Below are positions 11,733 to 25,355 of a stretch of DNA of 64,000 nt, in pieces. Made by a program: the position numbers and the translations under genes. Below the pieces are notes generated by a model. It saw nothing but the letters and a program-made list of their open reading frames with translations, was not told where the DNA came from and did not search any database. The DNA is from Isosphaera pallida ATCC 43644 (GTDB lineage Bacteria; Planctomycetota; Planctomycetia; Isosphaerales; Isosphaeraceae). The stretch covers positions 186,001 through 250,000 of the forward strand of contig NC_014962.1 of assembly GCF_000186345.1 (NCBI RefSeq), given 5' to 3'. The stretch's first letter is position 1. Every line of letters starts with the position of its first letter.

Positions 11733-12134
11733 AAAGCGCGATCAACGCTCCAATGAACGACCAACTGCAACATGCAGGTCGATGAGTGTGCGTAGATGAT
11801 CAAATAAATATACTAGGTATATCTTAAGAAGCTCTTTTCATTTTGAATCGATTCCGCTGGGATAGGATGCCTTTGCCCCTGGTTGGGGACGGGGCTTGAG
11901 ATTAGCGTTGACGGTTCGGCGTGGTTGGGCTATCGTGCCGCGCCTTTGTCCCTGCCGACCGGAGGCGGGGATGAGCGAGGAGCCGAACTAGGAGGGTTCG
12001 GCGTGGTGGGCTGATTCAAGCTGGGAGTCATCGGTGTGGTGGCATGACCGGCGTGAAGGGGGCGTGATCGGGCTTGGGTGGCGAAGAGCCCTGGAGTTCG
12101 AGGCGTCGGCGATCGAAGGCAGGGAGGCGAGGCG
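11733..12134. other. Intergenic region with AT-rich segment before kdsD
   Basis: No gene is seen. An unusually AT-rich stretch at 11798-11850 interrupts otherwise GC-rich DNA and is the likeliest place for the kdsD promoter. It contains the inverted repeat listed separately. Confidence 0.4.
11808..11822. promoter_or_regulatory. AT-rich palindrome upstream of kdsD
   Basis: ATATAC and GTATAT form a perfect 6-bp inverted repeat around TAG inside the only AT-rich patch between yraN and kdsD. It could be an operator or overlap a promoter. The short arms make this tentative. Confidence 0.3.
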
Positions 12135-13280
12135 ATGGCCCCAGTTCGAGCCGCGGGGATCGTCGAGGAGGCGGTGAATGGTGTGGGCGGGAGTCCGCTG
12201 GCGGATCGGGGAAAGGATCGCCCTTTCACCGACGCTGAAGCGCTCGAGTTCGCCCGGCGGGTGGTACGGATCGAGGCGGCCACCTTAGAGCGGGTGGCCG
12301 ACCGCCTGGACGAGGGATTGGTCCGGGTGGCCGATCGGCTGGGTTCGGGACGCGCTTTGGTCTTCGTCCTTGGAGTGGGCAAGTCGGGTCTAGTGGGCGA
12401 GAAGCTGGCCGCGACCTTGGCCTCCACCGGCACCCGGGCCTTTCCGCTTCATCCCGCCGAAGCACTTCACGGCGATCTTGGACGGGTCCGCGAGGGGGAC
12501 GTGGCCCTGCTGCTTTCGGCCAGTGGCGAGACCGAGGAACTGCTCAAGATCGTTCCTCCGCTCAAGGCGTTGGGCGCGGTGCTGGTGGCGATCACCTGTC
12601 ACGAGCGCAGCGCCCTGGCCCGCAAAGCCGACGAACGGATCATCCTGGGACCAATCGAGGAGGCGTGTCCGCTGGGGTTGGCCCCTTCGGCGACCACGAC
12701 CGCGATGATGGCGGTGGGCGACGCGCTGGCGTTACTCGTCAGCCGTTGTCGGGGTTTCGACGCGCGGGGCTTCGTCAAGTTCCACCCTGGCGGCGCGTTG
12801 GGTCGCAAGCTTACTCGGGTCGAGGAGGTGATGCGGTCTGGCCCTCATGTGCGGATTGCCCGGGAGTCTGAGATCACCCGCGAGGTGTTGGTCCGTCTAG
12901 GCGGGGCGTCGCGGCGGGCTGGAGCCATTTTGATCGTCGATGACCGCGGCGTGTTGACCGGGATTTTCACCGACAGCGACCTTGCGCGTCTCTTCGAGCG
13001 TCAACGCGACTATCTGCTGGAGCGTCCCATTGTCGAGGCGATGACCCGCGCTCCCAGCTTAATCCGCGCCGGTCGCAGCCTGGCCGAGGCGCTGGACGCT
13101 CTGCAAGCCCGCAAGCTCAGCGAGTTGCCGGTGATCGACGAGGCCGGGCGGCCTATCGGCTTGATCGATGTGACCGACCTCCTGGGGATGGTGCCGCCTC
13201 ATCTGCTGCAAGCCGAAACGGACGAGCCAGCCAAGACGGTCGCCGCGGCGAGTTCGGAATCGGGGGAGGAGGTGCCATGA
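12135..13280 (+). CDS. kdsD: Arabinose-5-phosphate isomerase (KpsF/GutQ/KdsD family)
   Basis: 381 residues from the ATG at 12135, which has a good site (AGGGAGGCGAGG) just upstream; a GTG at 12078 extends the frame but is less likely. The enzyme interconverts ribulose 5-phosphate and arabinose 5-phosphate, the first committed step to Kdo of LPS. A SIS domain (about 40-190) shows GVGKSGLVGEKLAATLAST, SASGETEELL and the His-rich HPAEALHGDLG. Two CBS domains follow (about 225-355: GAILIVDDRGVLTGIFTDSDL and LSELPVIDEAGRPIGLIDVTDL). Its stop overlaps the kdsC start in ATGA, so the two are translationally coupled in the same pathway. Confidence 0.93.
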   Translation: MAPVRAAGIVEEAVNGVGGSPLADRGKDRPFTDAEALEFARRVVRIEAATLERVADRLDEGLVRVADRLGSGRALVFVLGVGKSGLVGEKLAATLASTGTRAFPLHPAEALHGDLGRVREGDVALLLSASGETEELLKIVPPLKALGAVLVAITCHERSALARKADERIILGPIEEACPLGLAPSATTTAMMAVGDALALLVSRCRGFDARGFVKFHPGGALGRKLTRVEEVMRSGPHVRIARESEITREVLVRLGGASRRAGAILIVDDRGVLTGIFTDSDLARLFERQRDYLLERPIVEAMTRAPSLIRAGRSLAEALDALQARKLSELPVIDEAGRPIGLIDVTDLLGMVPPHLLQAETDEPAKTVAAASSESGEEVP

Positions 13281-13852
13281 GCTTCGAGTTCGACGACCTC
13301 TCCGACGCCTCGTCCGACACCGTGGCCGCCGGCAATCGGAGTCTGGGCCTCCGCGAACGTTGCCAGCGCATGGAATTGCTGGTCCTGGACGTGGATGGCG
13401 TTCTCACCGACGGCGTGATCGCCTTAGACGATCGGGGGATCGAACTCAAGCGGTTCTCGGTGCGGGACGGGGCGGGAATCTCCTATTGGCGCAAGGCCGG
13501 CGGTAAGGTGGCGATCCTGTCAGGCCGTCGCAGCCGGGCGGTCGATTTGCGCGCTGCCGAACTGGGCATCACCCCGGTGATTCAGGGAGCCAAGGCCAAG
13601 CTTGAGCCGTTTCTGGGGCTTTTGGAGGACCTGGGGATTCCCGCCGAGCGCACCGTGTACATGGGAGACGATCTGGCCGACCTGCCGCCAATGGGTCTGG
13701 CGGGGTTGGCGGCCTGTCCCTCCGACGCCGCCGCCGAGGTCATTCGGGCTGCCGACCATGTTACCCGCGCCCCTGGGGGCCGGGGCGCAGTGCGGGAACT
13801 CGTTGAGTTTCTGCTCGACGCTCGTGGAGGTTGGCCGCCCCGCGACGCTTGA
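13277..13852 (+). CDS. kdsC: 3-deoxy-D-manno-octulosonate 8-phosphate phosphatase
   Basis: 191 residues; the ATG at 13277 overlaps the kdsD stop by four bases. It is a HAD-superfamily phosphatase that removes phosphate from Kdo-8-P. Motif I is LDVDGVLTDG (about 36-45, nucleophile and acid/base Asp). Motif II is AILSGRRSRAV, the family's substrate-specificity stretch is GAKAKLEPF, and motifs III/IV are YMGDDLADLP. The length and the lack of a cap domain match the KdsC tetramer type. The N-terminal 30 residues are an acidic extension. Together with kdsD it indicates that this organism makes Kdo and hence an LPS-bearing outer membrane. Confidence 0.92.
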   Translation: MSFEFDDLSDASSDTVAAGNRSLGLRERCQRMELLVLDVDGVLTDGVIALDDRGIELKRFSVRDGAGISYWRKAGGKVAILSGRRSRAVDLRAAELGITPVIQGAKAKLEPFLGLLEDLGIPAERTVYMGDDLADLPPMGLAGLAACPSDAAAEVIRAADHVTRAPGGRGAVRELVEFLLDARGGWPPRDA

Positions 13853-14233
13853 CTCGTTCGGTTGGTGGAGCAAGGCAAACAAACCGTCAAGTCAAGTCAA
13901 TCTCAATCGGCATCTGGTCTGGTCTTGGCCTTGAGCGGGGCGGGGTGCGTCGCCAACAGGGACCTTGGGGAACTCCGAACCAGTGGCCGCGTGATCGATT
14001 CGTTCGGCGTCTCCCCCCGACTTGAGTGAACCCCTGGGGGGCCCGGTGCCGATTCCTTGCTTGGGAGGAGAGTGGTTCCGTTTCTGAAACGCCAACCCTA
14101 GAGCAATGGGCTCCGGATCATCTCTCGGAGGGCGGCGTCGGCGAGTTCATCACGGAAGGAAGGTCCCCTTGTCGTCGCCGAACGGCCGGGGGGGGGATTT
14201 GATCGTGGGTCTCGAACTAGACAGGGCGCGAAC
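13853..14233. other. Intergenic region between kdsC and the giant envelope gene
   Basis: No credible gene. A run of nine G at 14188-14196 lies about 38 bases before the GTG start at 14234 and could be prone to slippage. No clear terminator is seen, so read-through from kdsDC is possible. Confidence 0.4.
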
Positions 14234-17200
14234 GTGGCGCGAAGCCTGTTGAGAACGGTGGTGGTGGGAATCCTCCTGGTCGCCTTGCACCAGGGCTATC
14301 TCCGCGCCTATGTTTGGCTGGAACAGGCGTTGAGGCCCAATCGCTCAGGTCTGACGATTGAGACCTTGCGTCCCTCGGCCTCCAAGCAGGAGGCCATGCG
14401 TCTGGCTCGGTTGGCTTTCGGCGAGGATCATTGGACCACCCCCGCTGACCTTCCCTGGCGGTACTACAACTCGGCCCGTGGTTATTGGCTCTACGCCCGC
14501 GAGCAAGCCCTCAGCGCCGATCGCAAAACGGTCACCTTTTCGCCCTTCGCGCTCATCTGGCGTTCGGAGGGCGGGAGTACCGAGGGCGACCCCCTCGACG
14601 ACCCCAACTTTAACCTGATCACTGTGTTGGCGGAACGGGCCGAGGTGGTGCTAGATCAGCCGCTCAATGCCAAGAATACCGGACGCGCGGGAGGACTCGG
14701 CAACCGGATCGTCACCGCCCGCATCGACGGTGACGTGCTGGCCCGCGACCATCGCAAGACAATCGGCGACCCGCGCGACGACCTCATCGTGAAGATGCCC
14801 TACCTCGAATATGTCGAGCGCGACTTCCTGATCCGCAGCGACGCGCCAGTGATCCTCTGGGATCAGGATTTCCAAATCTCCGGCGTCAACCTCACGATCG
14901 AATTGATTCCCTCGGTGTCCGAGGAAACCGGAGTCCCCTCGGGCACCGCCGGTTTTGCCGGAGTAAATCTGATTCGGCTGGACCGCGATGTTCATATCTA
15001 CGCCCGCGAGACTGGAGGTGATTCCTTCCTGCCGGGACGTCCGCGACCGCGCGTCCGCGCGGTGGTCGCTGAGCGTCGGCCGGTCCAAGGGCAGGAGCAG
15101 GAGCGGGGGGGGGAAGGACAATCCACGTCCGGCGGGTTGGCGTTGGAGGTGGCATTGGCGGCGGAGTCCGAGCGCGACGTGTTGCCTGAGTTGCCTCTGG
15201 CGGTGGATTCAGCCGCCGCCAAAGGGCGTCCAGGGGAACCCATTCCGGTGGAGTTGCGTTGTGACGGCGCGATGAGGATCGTGCCACCGTTCGTGGTGCA
15301 GCCCAACCGCGACCCCAACCGCGATGGTCCGGCTCCGACGATGGCCTACTTCACCCGTAACGTCAAAGTATCACGGGGGTTCGAGAACGCGGTCGATCAA
15401 CTCAATTGCGACGATTTGACCATCACCTTGGTGCCCGAACCTCGTCTGGCGATCGACCCGACCGCCAGCGCCGCGACCCACGCGGTTCTGCAGGGGGCGG
15501 CTTTGGGGATCGGTCAGTTTGGCGTGGGGGTGAGCTTAGCCTGGTCTGCCCACGCCGGGATCCTCGCCACCTGCTCCACGGCGGCAACAACCGGTTTGGC
15601 CAAGGCGTCGCCCGCTCGTTCCGACTCCGCGCCCGCTACGCGGAGCAAAGCCAACTCGCCGCTGGATTCCCGGATGACCGCCTCGTTCGAGCGTTTGACT
15701 CCTCGGCGGGTTCTAGCCGAAGGGCACGCCGTTTGGCTCCAATCCCAGGGGCTGGGACTCAAAGCGCGTGGGACCAAGCTGACCTACGATCGTCCCGGTT
15801 CGGGACGGCCCGACCGGGCGGTGCTGGACGCCGGGCCGACCTCGCGGGTCTTCGTCGAGCAGGTCGATCTCGACCCCCGCGACCCCGCCAAAATTCGGTC
15901 CGTCGCCACGGTGCGGTCGCGCCAGGTGACGATTCTGGACGACGGTTCGCCCGGTGGACCCATCAACCTCCGTGCTCAGGGGCCAGGCACGTTGGAGGAA
16001 CGCGAGGAGGCCGGCCAGCCCGCGCGTCGGACTGTCTCGTGGGACGAGTTGCTCGAACTGCGTTCGCCGGCTCAGGATCAACGAATCCTCATCTTGACGG
16101 GTCGCCCGGCGTTGTACGATGCCCGCAGCGGCACCTTGCAGGCCCGTGATCGGATCGTGGCTTGGCTCCAAGCTCAGCCCAGGCCCGTCAACGCCGAGGC
16201 TCCCGTGGCGGCGGCGACCCGCCACCCACGCGACAGCGGCTCGTTCCGCATCGAACGATTGCAGGCGTTCAACCAGGTGAAGCTCGACGCCCCCGGTCAG
16301 TCGCTCATGGCGCGGGATCGGCTCGACGCTTTCTTCGAGACACCCGAAGCCGTCCACCAAGTTCAGACGACGACGGCTCGTCTCACGGGGCCGCCGGTCG
16401 ATACCGCGGTCGGACCGGTCGCGGCGCGTTGGGTTGTTCAGGAGGCCAACGCGCTGGCGAATCCGGCAGCGGGGGCCGGTACCCAGGGAGCCGGACGTGG
16501 CGAAGCGGCTCCCGCGGCCGCTCCTTCGACCTGGAAGGTGGAGGCTCAAATGGTTTGGGCGCGGCTGACCGCGCGTTCTAACCCAACCCGCTCCGCCGCG
16601 CGGGGCGACAACGCGGGCGAGGCCGCTGCATTTACTCCGTTGACGCCAACAGCCAACGGGGTCGTCGGCGGCGACGGGGCTTGGGATTTGGAGCAGGCGT
16701 TTTTGCGGGGCGGGGTCGCGGTTCGCCAGGAGTTTCCCGCCGATTCTCCCCAGGCCGGGACCGGTTTGCGAGTCGAAGGCGCGGCGGTCGATGTCGAGCG
16801 TAAGGCCGAAGATCGCCACCTGCTCAAGATCGTGGGCGACGAGGCCCGACCAGTCGCGCGGGTTTGGAATTCCCAGTTCGACCTTCGTGGTCCCAAAATG
16901 GTGGTCAATCAGCTCAAGGAGTTCGCCTACGTCGAGGGGGCGGGCGAACTCACCACCTGGGGCGAGGGTCCGCTGGGCGGCTCCGTCAAGGCGGCCGGAC
17001 CAGTTGCCACAGCGCGTCGCGCCGCCCTCCAGGACGACGAGGAAACGCCCGCCGCGGCGGCTTCCTCGTCGCAGGCGCGACCCAAGACGATTCGTTGGAC
17101 CCGGTTGATGACCTTCGAGGGCCGGGTGGTCGAGTCCGACGGCGTCGAGCGGCCCGCCCGCGCCCGCTTCGACGGCGGCGTGCGGGGCGATCTGGGCGAC

Positions 17201-18325
17201 GCTGACATTGCTTGCGAACGTCTCACCGCGTATCTCGATCAGGCTGTCAGCTTCGCCGGAGTTGCCTCGTTGTTGGAACCGCCAGGAGCAAACCGCGAGC
17301 CGCGACTCCAGCCCCGCGCGGTTGGCGAGGCCGGCGCGCGGCCCGAGGCGAATGCGACTCCACCGCCGTTGCAGGTGGCTTGGGTGCGGGCCGAGGGTGG
17401 CGTGGCCTTGACGCACCGTCCGATGAACGCGCGGATTGGCCGCGTTGATCAAATCGTTCGGGCTTCGGGACCGGTCATCGTGTTTGATCGCGGTTCGGGA
17501 GCTTATCAGATCGAGGGCGCGGGCATGGTGCGGCATCACCAATGGAAGATCGAGCGCCGCGAGCCCACCACCCGCGTTGAGCCTCAGCCCGACGGCTCGG
17601 CGCGAACCGTGACGGTCGCCGCAGCGGAACGCTCCTTCTGGCAGGCCACTCGGGTGACCTTCCAGAAAGGCATGATGGGCAGGGTGGGGCTGGACTCCAG
17701 CGGCGTGGGATTCAACATCCGCGGCGACCAACCCCAACGCGCGGAGTTTCTGGGCGATGTCGATCTGATCCAAGCGCGGGTCGAAACCGCCGACGAAGAT
17801 CTCAATCCCGACGCTCCCCCGCCTGACTTCGTGCGGCTCAGCGCTGCTCGGATGATTGTGGACACGTTGCCGCCGCCTCCCGACGCACCCGCAGACGTCA
17901 AGCAATGGCTGCTGATGGAGGCGATCGGTTCGGCCAACGCCCGGACCCGCGACACCTCGATCCAAGGCGCGACCATCAAATACGACTCGCTCCGCTCGAC
18001 CTGCCTGGTCCAAGGGGCGCGGGGGCGCGACGTGCTGGTGGTGCGTCAGGATCAACCCGGCGCGGGAGTCTCCTACGGCCAATCCGGCTCGGTTCTGGTC
18101 AACCTCAAGACCCGCGACGTCGCACTCGTTGATCCCAAGTCCGGCGACCTGTTGACACGCCCCGGCGCGCCCTTGGTGGCCCCGCCGCCGGTGACCCCGC
18201 GTCCCGACCGCTTGCGCGACCGCTTCCCACGACCCAGTCAACGCAACGATCGGGAACGCTCCGACGTGGGAGCCGGTCAGCGCGTCTTAAACGGCGCGGG
18301 CGGCAATAACGGCTTCCTCCCCTGA
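14234..18325 (+). CDS. Giant OstA/LptA-like envelope protein, candidate LPS-transport component
   Basis: 1363 residues from a GTG at 14234. An N-terminal hydrophobic segment (about 4-22) anchors or exports it. The body is beta-rich with several units resembling OstA/LptA/LptC beta-jellyroll repeats. These include ARIDGDVLARDH to VILWDQDFQISG (about 155-220), YFTRNVKVSRG to QLNCDDLTITLVP (about 373-405), VLAEGHAVWLQ to GTKLTYD (about 495-520), RFDGGVRGDLGDADIACERL (about 977-996) and ASGPVIVFDRGSG. Long Pro/Ala/Arg-rich stretches, likely disordered, separate them. It follows kdsD-kdsC, where lptC-lptA follow in enterobacteria. I infer a periplasmic LPS bridge or scaffold; similarity is weak and needs profile searches. 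A long opposite-strand frame here is a shadow. Confidence 0.7.
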   Translation: MARSLLRTVVVGILLVALHQGYLRAYVWLEQALRPNRSGLTIETLRPSASKQEAMRLARLAFGEDHWTTPADLPWRYYNSARGYWLYAREQALSADRKTVTFSPFALIWRSEGGSTEGDPLDDPNFNLITVLAERAEVVLDQPLNAKNTGRAGGLGNRIVTARIDGDVLARDHRKTIGDPRDDLIVKMPYLEYVERDFLIRSDAPVILWDQDFQISGVNLTIELIPSVSEETGVPSGTAGFAGVNLIRLDRDVHIYARETGGDSFLPGRPRPRVRAVVAERRPVQGQEQERGGEGQSTSGGLALEVALAAESERDVLPELPLAVDSAAAKGRPGEPIPVELRCDGAMRIVPPFVVQPNRDPNRDGPAPTMAYFTRNVKVSRGFENAVDQLNCDDLTITLVPEPRLAIDPTASAATHAVLQGAALGIGQFGVGVSLAWSAHAGILATCSTAATTGLAKASPARSDSAPATRSKANSPLDSRMTASFERLTPRRVLAEGHAVWLQSQGLGLKARGTKLTYDRPGSGRPDRAVLDAGPTSRVFVEQVDLDPRDPAKIRSVATVRSRQVTILDDGSPGGPINLRAQGPGTLEEREEAGQPARRTVSWDELLELRSPAQDQRILILTGRPALYDARSGTLQARDRIVAWLQAQPRPVNAEAPVAAATRHPRDSGSFRIERLQAFNQVKLDAPGQSLMARDRLDAFFETPEAVHQVQTTTARLTGPPVDTAVGPVAARWVVQEANALANPAAGAGTQGAGRGEAAPAAAPSTWKVEAQMVWARLTARSNPTRSAARGDNAGEAAAFTPLTPTANGVVGGDGAWDLEQAFLRGGVAVRQEFPADSPQAGTGLRVEGAAVDVERKAEDRHLLKIVGDEARPVARVWNSQFDLRGPKMVVNQLKEFAYVEGAGELTTWGEGPLGGSVKAAGPVATARRAALQDDEETPAAAASSSQARPKTIRWTRLMTFEGRVVESDGVERPARARFDGGVRGDLGDADIACERLTAYLDQAVSFAGVASLLEPPGANREPRLQPRAVGEAGARPEANATPPPLQVAWVRAEGGVALTHRPMNARIGRVDQIVRASGPVIVFDRGSGAYQIEGAGMVRHHQWKIERREPTTRVEPQPDGSARTVTVAAAERSFWQATRVTFQKGMMGRVGLDSSGVGFNIRGDQPQRAEFLGDVDLIQARVETADEDLNPDAPPPDFVRLSAARMIVDTLPPPPDAPADVKQWLLMEAIGSANARTRDTSIQGATIKYDSLRSTCLVQGARGRDVLVVRQDQPGAGVSYGQSGSVLVNLKTRDVALVDPKSGDLLTRPGAPLVAPPPVTPRPDRLRDRFPRPSQRNDRERSDVGAGQRVLNGAGGNNGFLP

Positions 18326-19397: not shown

Positions 19398-20207
19398 ATG
19401 TGGTTTTCCACCGCCGTGGTTCCCGACCCGACCGCGTTGCCGTTGGCCGTGTTGGTAGTAATCTGCGCCGTGATGATCGAGGCCGCGATCATTGATGGTT
19501 GGAAGCTGAAGGTGCCCAACTGGCTGACCTACAACTTCCTGGGCGCGGGGATTTTGTATTGGACCGTGACTTCCGGCTGGGCCGGGTTCCAGTTCGCCAT
19601 GCTGGGGTTCCTGGCCGGGTTCGTGCTATATCCGCTGTGTCTGGTCGGTGGCATGGGAGCGGGCGACGTCAAGCTGCTCTTCGGCATCGGGGCGTGGACC
19701 GGCTGGTACGCCACTCTAGTCATCTTCGCTCTTTGCGCGGTGGTGGGTGGGATCATGGCGGTTATCATGATGGCCCGCGAAGGGCAGTTAGCTCACCGGC
19801 TGCTCAACTTGCAGATCATCCTCAGCGAGTGGTGGAGTCTGAAGAATCCCGAGAATCTGGAAAAAGTTCAAGCCTCGGCACTAGAGCGCAAGCAGGCTGA
19901 CCTCAAAAAGAAGATGCTGCTGCCCTACGGGATTCCGATGGTGATCGCGGCTGTAAGCTATTTGAGCTACATTTGGGTGGACGCGAACGGTTTGAGTTCG
20001 GCGCGGGCGGCGGTTCCAACCGTGACCGCTTCAACGGGAGGCCAACCAATCACCCCTAGCACGATGGGACCGGCATTGCGTTCAACCTCCACACCCTCTG
20101 TCGCGCGGGATGTTCCGTCGGAATCGTCGTCTTCCGCCGAATCGGCGGTCGGTTCCGAACCCGCCGCGTCCTCTCCCTCAACTGAGGCGGCCGATGCGCG
20201 ATCTTAA
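19398..20207 (+). CDS. cpaA: Prepilin peptidase, A24 family (CpaA/TadV)
   Basis: 269 residues from the ATG at 19398, preceded by TTGAGG. This membrane aspartic protease cleaves the Flp leader. Hydrophobic spans are visible at about 12-30, 43-58, 65-85, 95-120 and 172-190. The two catalytic Asp are in AAIIDGWKLKVPNWL (about residue 33) and GMGAGDVKLLFG (the GxGD motif, about residue 92). The zinc-binding methylase domain of PilD-type enzymes is absent, as expected for Tad peptidases. It is longer than usual: a charged cytoplasmic insert (about 125-170, with ALERKQADLKKK) and a Ser/Thr-rich C-terminal tail are added. It opens the assembly part of the Tad locus. Confidence 0.93.
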   Translation: MWFSTAVVPDPTALPLAVLVVICAVMIEAAIIDGWKLKVPNWLTYNFLGAGILYWTVTSGWAGFQFAMLGFLAGFVLYPLCLVGGMGAGDVKLLFGIGAWTGWYATLVIFALCAVVGGIMAVIMMAREGQLAHRLLNLQIILSEWWSLKNPENLEKVQASALERKQADLKKKMLLPYGIPMVIAAVSYLSYIWVDANGLSSARAAVPTVTASTGGQPITPSTMGPALRSTSTPSVARDVPSESSSSAESAVGSEPAASSPSTEAADARS

Positions 20208-20447
20208 CTGGGATTAATCATGGTGATGGGATGTCATTCGGTCGATTCCCGCTCGCCCAGGTCGTCTTCCACTTGATTCAACCGGCGAAACCGTAAGCCC
20301 AACCCTGGCGCGCCGGCATACAACGTCATCCGTCGCGGGCGATCTCCGGTTGAAGAATGGAATGGTCTCGCCCGCCAATCCCGGATTCGCTCCCTGTTTC
20401 CCCTCCCTCAACCCGACATCCATTCTTGATTTCTGGGGATTCCGTTT

Positions 20448-21758
20448 ATGAGCCGTGGCGTCCTCACGCTTGTTCTTGCGTTGGTTGTTGGTGGCGCGGC
20501 GATGTTCCTCGCCCGAAGCTATTTGAAGACGGGTCCACAGCCCCCCAAGAAGTATTTCGTGGTGGTGGCGCGGCAGACCATCACCCCTGGCACCAGTCTC
20601 AACGAGATCGACGAGGCCTTGAGCCAAACTCCTAACCCCTTCCGTTACCTCGACCTGCGGGAAATCACCCCTGAAGAACTGTTCGCCGAACTCAAACAGC
20701 CCTTCCCGGACTTGAGCGCGGTGGGCGGCGGTTCCCAGTCGGCTTCCTCCGCCGGGGAGACTCAGAATCAACCCTCAGCCGAAGGGAAGCAGCAAGCGGC
20801 TCCTCCGGCGGAGGGCGGAAACACGCCCCAGAGCTTGGCGAGTACCGGCGGAAAAGACACCTTGACGCCCGAGCAACGCGCAGAACTCGAGCGGCGCATG
20901 AGGGAGTTGCCGGTGTTTTTCGATCGCGCTGGATTGCAGCGTTTGGCCGACGCCAAGTCGCCCTACTGGGCCAGTCAGACGATTGGCAAGGGCGAGATCA
21001 TCACGCGGGACATGCTGGGGGACCCCGCGACGATTCCAGGGGTGTACACCAACGTTCGCCCGGGGTATCGGGGGATTTCGATCAAGGTGACTCCGGAAAC
21101 GGGGGGTGGCGGTCACGTGTTGCCCGGCAACTACGTGGATGTGGGCGCGGTTTACACCAACCAGCGCACGGCCAAGATTTTGCTCCAGAACGTCAAGGTG
21201 CTAGCGGTTGGCGAGGCGATCAAGCCTGATCCTAAGAAGGCGGCGATGAACGCCCAGACCGTGGTGTTGGAACTCAAGCCGGAAGAGGCCAACCTTCTTC
21301 AGGTGGCCGTGGGTCAGCGGGGCACGCTCCGGTTGTTGATTCGCGGCAACAAGGACGACCAGCTGCTGTCCGAGGACAAACTGGAAGTGGTTTACGGTGA
21401 GTCGGAAGCCGAGCGGCTGGACCTGAGGCAGAAGCTGGAGGACCTGGACCTCAAGCACAACATGTTCCTGGCGGAAAAGGTGGACGAACTCAAGGGCGGC
21501 AAGCCGACGACCCCAACTGCCACCGTCAAGGCCAAGGCGGAGCCGTCCGCCAGGCGAAACGGGGTGTTGGTGGTGACGACGCCAGGCAAAGCCCAAACGG
21601 TCAACGCCGGTGGCGGCGGCGAGACCAATCCGGGGACGGTTTTCAGTTCAGTACCGGGTCAAGCCGGCACGCTCAACGCGGCTACACCCAATCCCGGCCA
21701 GTTCATCAATCCGGGACCGCCGCCGGTGAACTATGGTCAGCCAAGTGGTCAACCCTGA
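20448..21758 (+). CDS. cpaB: Flp pilus assembly protein CpaB/RcpC
   Basis: 436 residues from the ATG at 20448. An N-terminal signal/anchor (about 4-22) is followed by KKYFVVVARQTITPGTSLN, the start of the CpaB region. A Ser/Gln/Glu-rich linker, probably disordered, covers about 85-145. The SAF-like domain continues with GKGEIITRDML, RPGYRGISIKVTPETG, HVLPGNYVDVGAVYTN and TAKILLQNVKVLAVGEA (about 180-265), with the conserved LPGNYVDV turn. The C-terminus is Gly/Pro/Asn-rich. CpaB is a periplasmic component that works with the secretin, yet no secretin gene lies beside it here, which is unusual. Confidence 0.92.
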   Translation: MSRGVLTLVLALVVGGAAMFLARSYLKTGPQPPKKYFVVVARQTITPGTSLNEIDEALSQTPNPFRYLDLREITPEELFAELKQPFPDLSAVGGGSQSASSAGETQNQPSAEGKQQAAPPAEGGNTPQSLASTGGKDTLTPEQRAELERRMRELPVFFDRAGLQRLADAKSPYWASQTIGKGEIITRDMLGDPATIPGVYTNVRPGYRGISIKVTPETGGGGHVLPGNYVDVGAVYTNQRTAKILLQNVKVLAVGEAIKPDPKKAAMNAQTVVLELKPEEANLLQVAVGQRGTLRLLIRGNKDDQLLSEDKLEVVYGESEAERLDLRQKLEDLDLKHNMFLAEKVDELKGGKPTTPTATVKAKAEPSARRNGVLVVTTPGKAQTVNAGGGGETNPGTVFSSVPGQAGTLNAATPNPGQFINPGPPPVNYGQPSGQP

Positions 21759-22303
21759 GGACCCCAGCCCCAAGCGGGTTGATCGGACCAGCTGGGACGT
21801 TGTTCCCGCGCCTCCTTCCCCCGCGCCGCGCCGGTTTCACCAACCGTCGCGGCGCGACGGCGTTGAGGCGAAGGAAGTCGCCGATGCGCGGCCGAGTCCA
21901 CGTTCGGATCGCGGGAGGGCGATCCCTCGACGCGACGGTAGACGATGAACTAGGATACGAAAGGAAAACCGGTCCCACGACCTCCACCGATGGTCGTGTG
22001 GTCCATCCTGGGAACCAGCCATGAGCGGCATAGGTTTTCACGTGACGGGATGACCTTTGGCGAAACGTCGCGCGGGGTTGTGAGACACACGGGCGTAGGC
22101 CAAAGCGCGATCGGTTCAGCGGGTGGAATTGCCACGGGATTCCATTCGCGTCCTCTCATGGAGTGGAGGACGACGGGGCGGGATTCGGATCGGGTCTTGG
22201 GACGCGACGAATCGGCCGAGATGGCGTGGATGGACGACGGTTGACCGCGGAGCGATCTCAACGGCGATCGCGGCGTGGGTTCCTTTTCGCAGGGTGAAGC
22301 GAC
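21759..22303. other. Intergenic region between cpaB and cpaE
   Basis: A 545-base stretch without a credible gene, in the place where cpaC (secretin) would usually lie. Frames on both strands are short and show no family features, so no remnant of a secretin is visible. Confidence 0.45.
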
Positions 22304-23527
22304 ATGAACAAAGGCGTGATTCGCGTCGTCCTGATCGATCCCAACGAGGAGTCGCGGAAGACCCTCCAACGGATGCTCGGGAGTTTGAACAACCTCTGGC
22401 TGGCGGATGTTTGCACCGCGTACTCCAACGCGGCCGCAACAGTGGCCGAGTCTCCCCCCGACCTAACCGTAATCGTGATGGACAACAACCCCGAGGAAGC
22501 CCTCGGGGTGATTGCGGGGATTTACAAGGTCGTCCCCGACGCGTTGGTGTTGCCGGCCTGCACTGCCGCCCTGATTCAGCCCGACATGCTGATGAGGCTG
22601 ATGCGGTTTAAGACTGCGCCGGTGCTGCCACTGCCGACGGAAATGGACCAACTTATCAAAGCGATCGAGGATCAAGTCCGGCCCGGCGCTCAAGACCAGA
22701 GCGACTCGTCGGTTCCCAAGCTGGTGGCCGTGACTGGGGCCAGCGGCGGGGTGGGTTGCACTTCGCTGGCGGTCAACGTCGGGGCGATGCTGGCCCGGTC
22801 GCACCCCAATCAGTCAGTGGCGCTGCTCGACTTCGACATGCTCTTCGGCACGGTCGATTCCTGCCTGGACCTGATCCCCGAACGAACCGTGATGGACATG
22901 TTACGCGACCTGGATCGGCTCGACCAAACCTCGATGCGGCAGATTCTCCTGTCCGACGAGTCGGGTCTCCATGTGCTGCCCCACCCGGTTTCAATGGAGG
23001 AGTCGGCCCAGATCAACCCCGAGGCGCTGCGGCGGATGGTCGGGATGCTCAAGGTGTCGTTTGACACGGTGCTGATCGACTGCAGCAAATCGCTGCAAGC
23101 CCCCGACTTCATCGCGTTCGAATTGGCTGACATCATCTTGCTGGTGGTGCAACTCGACCTCAACAACCTGCGCAACAGCGCGCGGCTGCTAAGCCTGTTC
23201 CGCCAACCGGAATTCGAATGGGGAGACAAAATCCGGGTGGTGGTCAACCGCTATGGATCGCACACCCAAGAAATCACCCCGCGTCGCGCCCAGGAAGTGC
23301 TGGAGACGCCCATCTCCTGGCAAATCCCTAACGACACAGCCACCTACAGCGCCGCGATGAGCCGCGGACGACCAATCGACGTGGTCAACCCGAAATGCCC
23401 GGCCCGCAAAGTGATCCAGGACATCGTCGAGACCCTGGCGAAACCAGTGGAATCCGGGAGCGGGCCCAGCAACGGGGCGACAGGTCCCAAGATACCGTTT
23501 CGCAGCAAAACGCGCTCCCGATTCTAA
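22304..23527 (+). CDS. cpaE: Tad pilus localisation protein CpaE/TadZ (receiver-like plus MinD-like ATPase)
   Basis: 407 residues from the ATG at 22304, after a GGGTGAAG site. The N-terminal domain (about 1-120) looks like a response-regulator receiver (VVLIDPNEESRKTL, DLTVIVMDNN). The C-terminal domain (about 138-385) is MinD/ParA-like: P-loop GASGGVGCTSLAVN, switch I region LLDFDMLFGTVD and VLIDCSKSLQAPD. The usual P-loop lysine is Cys, and the MinD signature lysine is also missing; deviant P-loops are known in TadZ. The protein places the Tad machine at its site in the cell. A Ser/Arg-rich tail ends it. Confidence 0.92.
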   Translation: MNKGVIRVVLIDPNEESRKTLQRMLGSLNNLWLADVCTAYSNAAATVAESPPDLTVIVMDNNPEEALGVIAGIYKVVPDALVLPACTAALIQPDMLMRLMRFKTAPVLPLPTEMDQLIKAIEDQVRPGAQDQSDSSVPKLVAVTGASGGVGCTSLAVNVGAMLARSHPNQSVALLDFDMLFGTVDSCLDLIPERTVMDMLRDLDRLDQTSMRQILLSDESGLHVLPHPVSMEESAQINPEALRRMVGMLKVSFDTVLIDCSKSLQAPDFIAFELADIILLVVQLDLNNLRNSARLLSLFRQPEFEWGDKIRVVVNRYGSHTQEITPRRAQEVLETPISWQIPNDTATYSAAMSRGRPIDVVNPKCPARKVIQDIVETLAKPVESGSGPSNGATGPKIPFRSKTRSRF

Positions 23528-23771
23528 GCGGTTACTCAGATTCAGGATTCTCGGATCGAGCGTTCCAACAACCTGACGCCGCCGAGCGCGAGGAGGTCTT
23601 AGGGGTTCGACCCCATCGGCGACGACGCGGTGGACGAACGCGACCTATGATTGACTCGATGGGGTCCGCGTCGTGTCGTTCATCGACCCGGATCCAACGA
23701 TCTCCTTGAACTCGAAGCGGATCGAGGCGAGGCGACGAAGTTTGGTCTGGACGGCATTGAGGGCGGGTCAT

Positions 23772-25355
23772 ATGGGCTTGGGCAACACGGGCAGACCCTT
23801 CGGCAACACCGGATTCGGCGGTCGGTTCGGCAATCGCGGCGGGTTATCCAGTCCGGCGACCGGAGCGCCAGGGGTGACGGGAGCCACCGGAGCGCCGGGG
23901 GTCACCGGAGTCACCGGGGTGACCGGAGCGCCGGGGGTCACCGGGGTGACCGGAGTCACCGGCGGCGTGACGGGGATTCCTGGTCGTACCGGGATCACGG
24001 GCGGAGTCACCGCCGGCGGCACCCCGATTGGGGGAGCAGGCCTGAAACCCGGCGGTGACCGCGAAGTGGACGCTCCAGGCGACAAGTTCGACTCGCTCAA
24101 GCGGCAAATTCACCTCCAGCTGGTCGATAAACTCGACTTCTCCAAGCTGGGGGAAATGGATCAGGGGACGCTCAAAACCGAAGTCAAAGCGTTGATCGAA
24201 ACCCTGATCGATGAACAAAACCCGATCATCAACCGTCAAAAGCGGTCGGAGATCGTCAAGGAGATTATGGACGAGGTGTTCGGCTTCGGCCCCCTCGAAC
24301 TACTCCTGAAGGACGACAAGATCGGCGACATCATGATCAACGGTCCCAAGACGATCTTCATCGAAAAAGGAGGCAAGATTCAGAAGACCGACGTGGTCTT
24401 CAAGGATAACCAACACCTGCTGCAGATCATCGACCGGATCGTGGCGCGGGTGGGCCGGCGGGTGGACGAGACCTCGCCGATGGTGGACGCACGGTTGCCC
24501 AACGGCTCGCGGTTCAACGCGATCATTCCCCCCCTAGCGCTGGACGGCCCGGCGGTGACGATCCGGGTGTTTGGCTCCAAGCCGCTGGGTAAGGAGGATC
24601 TGCTCAAGTTCAAGGCGTTCACGCCGGAAATGATCCTGATGCTTGAAGGGGCCATGAAAGCCCGGCTCAACGTGGTCATCTCGGGCGGTACCGGCTCGGG
24701 CAAAACAACGCTGCTCAACACCCTCTCCAGCTTCATCCCGCACGACGAGCGGGTGATCACGATCGAAGACGCTGCCGAGTTGCAGCTGCAACAGCCCCAC
24801 GTGGTACGGTTGGAAACCCGCCCAGCTAACATCGAAGGCAAGGGCGCGGTGACCGCCACCGACCTGGTCAAAAACGCGCTGCGGATGCGTCCCGACCGTA
24901 TCATCATCGGCGAGTGTCGAGGGGCCGAGACCCTGGACATGATTCAGGCGATGAACACCGGTCACGAAGGCTCGATGACCACGGTGCACGCCAATACGCC
25001 GCGGGACGCGATTGCCCGTTTGGAAACGATGATCTCGATGGCCGGTCTGGAATTGCCGATCCGGGCGCTGCGTCAGCAGTTCGCCTCCGCGATCGACCTC
25101 ATCATCCAAGCCAACCGTCTCCAGGGTGGCCCCCGGAAGGTGACCAGCATCACTGAAGTGGTCAACATGGAAGGCGACACCATCATCATGCAGGAGATTT
25201 TTGGCTTCAAGCAAACCCATGTGGATGAGACGGGTCGCGCCCACGGCCAATTCTGGTGCCACGGCATCCGTCCGACCTTCATGGATCGGCTGGAGGCCAA
25301 AGGGTTCCATGTGCCGCCCGATTTCTTCCGTCAGCGAATGTTGCTGGAGGACTAA
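23772..25355 (+). CDS. cpaF: Tad pilus motor ATPase CpaF/TadA with collagen-like N-terminus
   Basis: 527 residues from the ATG at 23772, eight bases after GAGG; a GTG at 23673 would add 33 residues. Residues 31-76 are Gly-x-y triplets ([15 protein letters not shown]), like collagen and foreign to this family. Residues from about 90 onward are a standard VirB11-like secretion ATPase: N-terminal domain with [20 protein letters not shown], Walker [15 protein letters not shown] (about 305), Asp box [11 protein letters not shown], Walker B region [14 protein letters not shown] and His box [19 protein letters not shown]. It powers pilus assembly on the cytoplasmic side with TadB and TadC. Confidence 0.95.
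23862..23999 (+). repeat. Tandem repeat coding for collagen-like Gly-x-y triplets
   Basis: Degenerate tandem repeats built from GGAGCGCCGGGGGTCACC and GGAGTCACCGGGGTGACC-like units code for eleven uninterrupted Gly-x-y triplets, then one extra Gly and four more triplets. Near-identical units suggest the number can change by slippage. Confidence 0.85.

What the first reader, a model, noticed from the sequence alone, without database searches (positions are those of the whole stretch)
12135..18325. Giant OstA/LptA-like protein downstream of kdsD-kdsC: candidate divergent LPS-transport bridge
The kdsD-kdsC pair is coupled by an ATGA overlap. The next gene on the strand codes for a 1363-residue exported or anchored protein with several units resembling OstA/LptA beta-jellyroll repeats. 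In enterobacteria kdsD-kdsC-lptC-lptA-lptB are contiguous, so the order is suggestive. LptC and LptA are each under 200 residues; one protein of this size could fuse or replace them with a long multi-repeat bridge suited to the unusual planctomycete periplasm. No lptB follows, which weakens the parallel.
Basis: partly seen in the sequence, partly recalled or inferred. Interest (0 to 1): 0.7.

Follow-up and report, generated by a model that had tools for sequence, protein, structure and literature searches.

The report
Single-chain LptC–LptA lipopolysaccharide bridge
A giant membrane-anchored protein made by nearly all sampled planctomycetes of this class appears to do in one chain the job that two or more small proteins (LptC and LptA) do in other bacteria: carrying lipopolysaccharide across the gap between the two cell membranes.

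Summary
kdsD and kdsC overlap by ATGA, and a 1363-residue gene (14234-18325 +) follows. The gene itself hits no Pfam or NCBIfam model, but its orthologs do. Across 59 genomes of the class, 58 carry it. In 64 of 66 loci inspected kdsD lies just upstream on the same strand. Orthologs hit LptA/OstA (PF03968) above the curated cut-off in three separate parts of the chain, and LptC (PF06835) just below its cut-off near the N-terminus, in the order LptC then LptA. AlphaFold gives an N-terminal membrane helix, an LptC-like jellyroll, and a run of about 60 strands ending in an LptA-like domain (2.1 Å over 130 of 135 residues of E. coli LptA). Internal blocks are detectably homologous to one another. 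The genome has LptB, LptF, LptG, a likely LptD and LpxC, but no separate LptC or LptA was found. The best reading is a natural single-polypeptide Lpt bridge replacing LptC plus several LptA copies. The extra length in Isosphaeraceae is disordered linker, not extra units. LPS transport itself is inferred, not shown. I found no earlier description; the literature I could read calls the planctomycete Lpt system 'largely reduced'.

The parts
12135..13280 (+). kdsD: arabinose-5-phosphate isomerase (SIS + CBS domains); ORF opens at 12078
   Evidence: TIGR00393 241 bits (cut-off 204), PF01380, PF00571
13277..13852 (+). kdsC: KDO-8-phosphate phosphatase; overlaps kdsD by ATGA
   Evidence: TIGR01670 144 bits (cut-off 107)
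14234..18325 (+). Giant LptC-LptA-like single-chain bridge, 1363 aa
14243..14332 (+). N-terminal membrane helix (residues 4-33), inner-membrane anchor as in LptC
   Evidence: AlphaFold helix; most hydrophobic 19-residue windows of the protein
14411..15013 (+). LptC-like jellyroll (residues about 60-260)
   Evidence: Foldseek 4b54/3my2 prob 1.00; VIA 6mjp_C Z 10.4 spanning residues 3-250; ortholog PF06835 hits map to 165-224
15221..15478 (+). Partial jellyroll unit, residues 330-415
   Evidence: hhalign to block 940-1125: prob 94, E 1.4e-7; ortholog PF03968 hits span 344-571
15671..16393 (+). Jellyroll block, residues 480-720
   Evidence: hhalign to block 940-1125 score 58.1, reversed control 27.1; strands in model; ortholog PF03968 hits
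16481..17023 (+). Jellyroll block, residues 750-930
   Evidence: hhalign to neighbouring blocks scores 42-49; LptD jellyroll 4q35 aligned over residues 764-1150, Z 13.8
17051..17608 (+). LptA/OstA jellyroll block, residues 940-1125
   Evidence: Ortholog PF03968 hits map to 961-1100; the G032 protein scores 51.5 bits, cut-off 20.4
17447..18052 (+). C-terminal LptA-like domain (residues 1072-1273), presumed to dock on LptD
   Evidence: VIA: 2r1a_C Z 13.5, rmsd 2.1, 130 of 135 residues; Foldseek 2r19/2r1a prob 1.00; only PDB profile hit is LptA 8onu, E 0.32; ortholog PF03968 hits map to 1195-1294

Best explanation
The gene codes for the periplasmic bridge of the lipopolysaccharide transport (Lpt) machine as one polypeptide. 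An N-terminal helix anchors it in the inner membrane beside LptB2FG (encoded elsewhere). Its first jellyroll acts as LptC, taking LPS from LptFG. It continues without a break into several LptA-like jellyroll units, and the last presents an LptA-like edge to the N-terminal jellyroll of LptD in the outer membrane. LPS would be pushed along the chained grooves by LptB2FG. Bridge length is thus set by one gene rather than by LptA oligomerisation. Shown here: gene, conservation, gene order, profile hits in orthologs, predicted fold, internal repeats, remaining Lpt genes and lack of detectable separate LptC or LptA. Inferred: membrane placement, contacts with LptFG and LptD, LPS as cargo, direction and energy.
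For: Family in 58 of 59 genomes of the class, 34 of 35 genera, all nine families sampled. kdsD adjacent upstream, same strand, in 64 of 66 loci, matching E. coli kdsD-kdsC-lptC-lptA-lptB. Among 22 members, Pfam hits recurring in more than one member are only PF03968 (7) and PF06835 (5), ordered LptC then LptA along the chain. Foldseek matches with probability 1.00 are LptC and LptA/LptH. VIA: LptC Z 10.4 with the helix included; LptA Z 13.5, rmsd 2.1. Internal repeats above reversed and permuted controls. Own genome: LptF/LptG pair, LptB over cut-off, LptD candidate, LpxC. No separate LptC; the only PF03968 signal in the genome, E 0.25, falls inside GAPDH. In 59 class genomes PF06835 never passes its cut-off, and the PF03968 hits lie in ORFs of about 1000 residues or more except one weak hit in a 421-aa ORF.
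Against: The window protein itself hits no Pfam or NCBIfam family at E up to 1. LptC profile hits in orthologs stay just below the curated cut-off (20.3 against 21 bits). The models are of moderate confidence (pLDDT 66 and 68, pTM 0.63 and 0.65) with disordered linkers, and came in two halves, so one continuous groove is not shown. Foldseek E-values are weak (best LptC 3.6e-4; best LptA 0.005 in the first half, 0.017 in the second). Direct comparison with single E. coli LptC is not significant. The LptD candidate is below the PF04453 cut-off (18.1 against 22.4). No biochemical or genetic evidence.
Confidence: 0.87

Rival explanations
1. A jellyroll bridge related to LptC/LptA that carries another amphiphile (for example a different glycolipid or a phospholipid) between the membranes.
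For: The fold alone does not define the cargo; spirochetes keep Lpt systems without LPS (PMC8407342, PMC10353723).
Against: The gene sits directly behind kdsD-kdsC, which make the KDO sugar of LPS, across the class; LpxC is present; lipid A synthesis genes are essential in Planctopirus limnophila (PMC10632474).
Confidence: 0.08
2. An accessory, elongated LptD-type or scaffold protein that works beside ordinary but highly diverged LptC and LptA not recognised by current profiles.
For: The profiles also fail on the window protein itself, so diverged small LptC/LptA could escape; LptD N-terminal jellyrolls also match the model well (4q35, Z 13.8).
Against: It has an LptC-like anchor and first domain and an LptA-like last domain, sits in the lptC-lptA position next to kdsC, and is nearly universal in the class; no small LptA/LptC passes the cut-offs in 59 genomes apart from one weak 421-aa ORF.
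Confidence: 0.05

Closest known systems
LptC (E. coli, Vibrio; PF06835)
   Same: N-terminal membrane helix followed by a jellyroll; gene right after kdsC; structural match to 6mjp_C, Z 10.4
   Different: LptC is about 190 residues with one jellyroll; here it is the first unit of a 1363-residue chain and scores below the Pfam cut-off
LptA / LptH (PF03968)
   Same: C-terminal domain superposes on E. coli LptA at 2.1 Å over 130 residues; orthologs pass the PF03968 cut-off in several blocks
   Different: LptA is a small soluble protein that chains by self-association, of unknown copy number (PMC5575297); here the units are covalently joined and fixed in number
LptD N-terminal jellyroll
   Same: Same fold; good match to the middle of the protein (4q35, Z 13.8)
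   Different: No sign of an outer-membrane barrel; a separate LptD candidate exists at C2:1402334
Bridge-like lipid transfer proteins (LPD-3, 9cap)
   Same: Also a long single-chain beta-groove; weak Foldseek match, prob 0.57, TM 0.17
   Different: Eukaryotic, different fold details; analogy only

Membership tests
LptC | N-terminal membrane anchor followed by an LptC-type jellyroll | tested here: met
   AlphaFold helix 4-33; 6mjp_C aligned from residue 3 to 250, Z 10.4; 4b54_B 125 of 125 residues, Z 9.9
LptC | Passes the curated PF06835 cut-off | tested here: not met
   No hit for the window protein; best ortholog 20.3 bits against 21; none of 59 genomes over cut-off
LptC | Binds LptB2FG and takes LPS from it | not testable with these tools
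   LptB, LptF and LptG are present in the genome; contact not tested
LptA | LptA-type jellyroll | tested here: met
   2r1a_C Z 13.5, rmsd 2.1, 130 of 135 residues; Foldseek prob 1.00
LptA | Passes the curated PF03968 cut-off | tested here: inconclusive
   Window protein: no hit. Orthologs: above cut-off in many, up to 51.5 bits against 20.4
LptA | Separate, small, soluble periplasmic protein | tested here: not met
   1363 residues with a membrane helix, single reading frame
Lpt system | LptB, LptF, LptG and LptD present in the same genome | tested here: met
   LptFG C2:499014-501879, LptB C2:1039629, LptD candidate C2:1402334: below the PF04453 cut-off, so LptD is likely rather than certain
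Lpt system | Transports LPS to the outer membrane | not testable with these tools
   LpxC present; no experiment

The most novel reading that the evidence does not exclude
Planctomycetia export LPS over a covalent bridge of fixed length: one protein replaces LptC and all LptA copies, so the number of units in a working bridge is written in the gene, and the apparent loss of lptA and lptC in this group is an annotation gap.
Probability: 0.72. Interest if true: 0.7.

Novelty: new variant of a known kind. Interest (0 to 1): 0.62.

Why it matters
How many LptA units make a working bridge is open; [quoted passage not shown] A natural bridge in one chain fixes that number (here about 60 strands; with about 16 per LptA, from general knowledge, close to four LptA equivalents) and makes the question testable by deleting or adding units. 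It also fills a gap: planctomycetes were reported to have an Lpt system in largely reduced form (PMC8871954), although they are diderm, have LPS and need lipid A genes (PMC10632474). The protein is not covered by Pfam or NCBIfam, so it is likely filed as hypothetical.

Tried and rejected
Pfam and NCBIfam on the protein alone gave nothing; orthologs and structure were needed. The single weak PF03968 signal elsewhere in the genome (E 0.25) lies inside a GAPDH gene and was rejected. Foldseek hits to teneurins, DDB1, TonB receptors and porins have probability about 0.3 or less and TM below 0.2 and were treated as chance. Direct hhalign of the family with single E. coli LptA (E 3e-4 to 1e-3 for some blocks; shuffled sequences 0.24-0.67 against the full profile) is suggestive only, and with LptC not significant. 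The idea that this species has extra units was rejected: the extra length lies in linkers. One class search failed and was repeated with fewer genomes.

Full report
What is there. The window lies in a 5.5 Mb genome whose nearest relatives include Singulisphaera and other Isosphaeraceae. kdsD (ORF 12078-13280) and kdsC (13277-13852) overlap by ATGA and match the KdsD and KdsC models above their subfamily cut-offs. After a gap of 381 bases comes one reading frame of 1363 residues, 14234-18325. The next assignable genes, from 19398, are Tad-pilus genes, so no lptB follows.

It is a real, conserved gene. A profile of the family finds it in 58 of 59 genomes of the class, covering 34 of 35 genera and all nine families sampled. 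Outside the class only weak matches appear, in ORFs of about 760 to 1195 residues. In 64 of 66 loci that I read, kdsD lies just upstream on the same strand. Of the two exceptions, one is a sigma-factor fusion (L037) and the other sits at a contig end (L136). kdsC lies between them in most families but is not detected there in one family (f2), where kdsD is the direct neighbour. This mirrors kdsD-kdsC-lptC-lptA-lptB of E. coli K-12.

Sequence evidence for LptC and LptA. The window protein alone hits nothing. Among 22 relatives the only families that recur are PF03968 (LptA/LptD N-terminal; 7 members, best 1.4e-13) and PF06835 (LptC; 5 members, best 4.4e-4, just under the cut-off). Mapped onto the window protein, the LptC hits fall at residues 165-224, and the LptA/OstA hits at 344-571, 516-628, 961-1100 and 1195-1294. 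These come from different genomes, yet the order is consistent: LptC first, then LptA-like units. A profile search of all PDB sequences returned one hit below E 10, and it is LptA (E 0.32).

Fold. AlphaFold was run on residues 3-780 and 660-1363 with 11 and 10 sequences. Mean pLDDT is 66 and 68, with well-predicted strands separated by disordered linkers. The first half starts with a helix (residues 4-33) and a jellyroll that matches LptC (Foldseek 4b54 and 3my2, probability 1.00; VIA 6mjp_C, Z 10.4 over residues 3-250). The second half ends in a domain that matches E. coli LptA at Z 13.5 and 2.1 Å over 130 of 135 residues. Its middle matches the LptD jellyroll (4q35, Z 13.8). I count about 60 strands in all from the two DSSP strings.

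Internal repeats. With a 64-sequence alignment, profile-profile comparison shows that blocks 330-415, 480-720, 750-930, 940-1125 and 1125-1345 are related to one another (scores up to 64.7; the best of 45 reversed or permuted controls is 27.1). Not every pair of blocks scores above the controls, but each block does with at least one other. The N-terminal block relates more weakly (38.6 and 33.8 to two blocks).

The rest of the machine. The genome has an LptF/LptG pair, LptB above its cut-off, LpxC and an LptD candidate (PF04453 18.1 bits, below cut-off). It has no PF06835 match at all, and its only PF03968 signal is a chance hit inside GAPDH. Over 59 class genomes, PF06835 never passes its cut-off, and the PF03968 matches lie in frames of about 1000 residues or more, apart from one 421-residue frame.

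Length. Orthologs in families f2 and f5 are about 1020 residues on average; 926 and 966 residues of the window protein align to them. The rest of the window protein is linker, rich in P, A, G, S, T, Q and E. The number of units therefore looks fixed in the class, and the larger size here is not a longer bridge.

Mechanism. By homology with the described Lpt bridge (PMC5575297), LPS would be handed from LptFG to the first jellyroll, pass along the chain, and leave at the LptA-like end to LptD. Everything after fold and gene order is inference.

Novelty. Searches of the open literature found no description of an LptC-LptA fusion in planctomycetes. Leonard et al. 2022 list planctomycetes among phyla with a largely reduced Lpt system (PMC8871954). 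Speth et al. 2012 reported LptD and BamA but did not mention LptA or LptC (PMC3422733). The library holds open-licence papers only, so an earlier description elsewhere is possible.

Noticed in passing
L037:5857-8247 (-), Singulisphaera sp. GP187: A 796-residue frame joins an ECF sigma factor (Sigma70_r2, r4_2) to a hydrophobic stretch and a truncated copy of this LptC-LptA family: a possible envelope-sensing sigma factor. Seen once; the same genome also has the intact gene.
   Followed up: partly
G047:C1:230469-234307: The family gene is split into two frames (434 and 1012 residues), either a frameshift or a natural LptC-like plus LptA-like pair.
   Followed up: no
L049:11005-12063 and L050:4049-5260: In family f4 the gene is followed, with overlap, by a DUF1573 protein.
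   Followed up: no
G075, G106, G164 (family f11, other class): Frames of 1058-1110 residues match the C-terminal part weakly, so a similar bridge may exist outside the class.
   Followed up: no
window 19398-25355: Tad pilus genes downstream: prepilin peptidase, CpaB, CpaE-like ATPase, TadA ATPase.
   Followed up: no
window 15713-18241 (-): An 842-residue open frame lies antisense to the gene; taken as a by-product of high G+C, not tested further.
   Followed up: no
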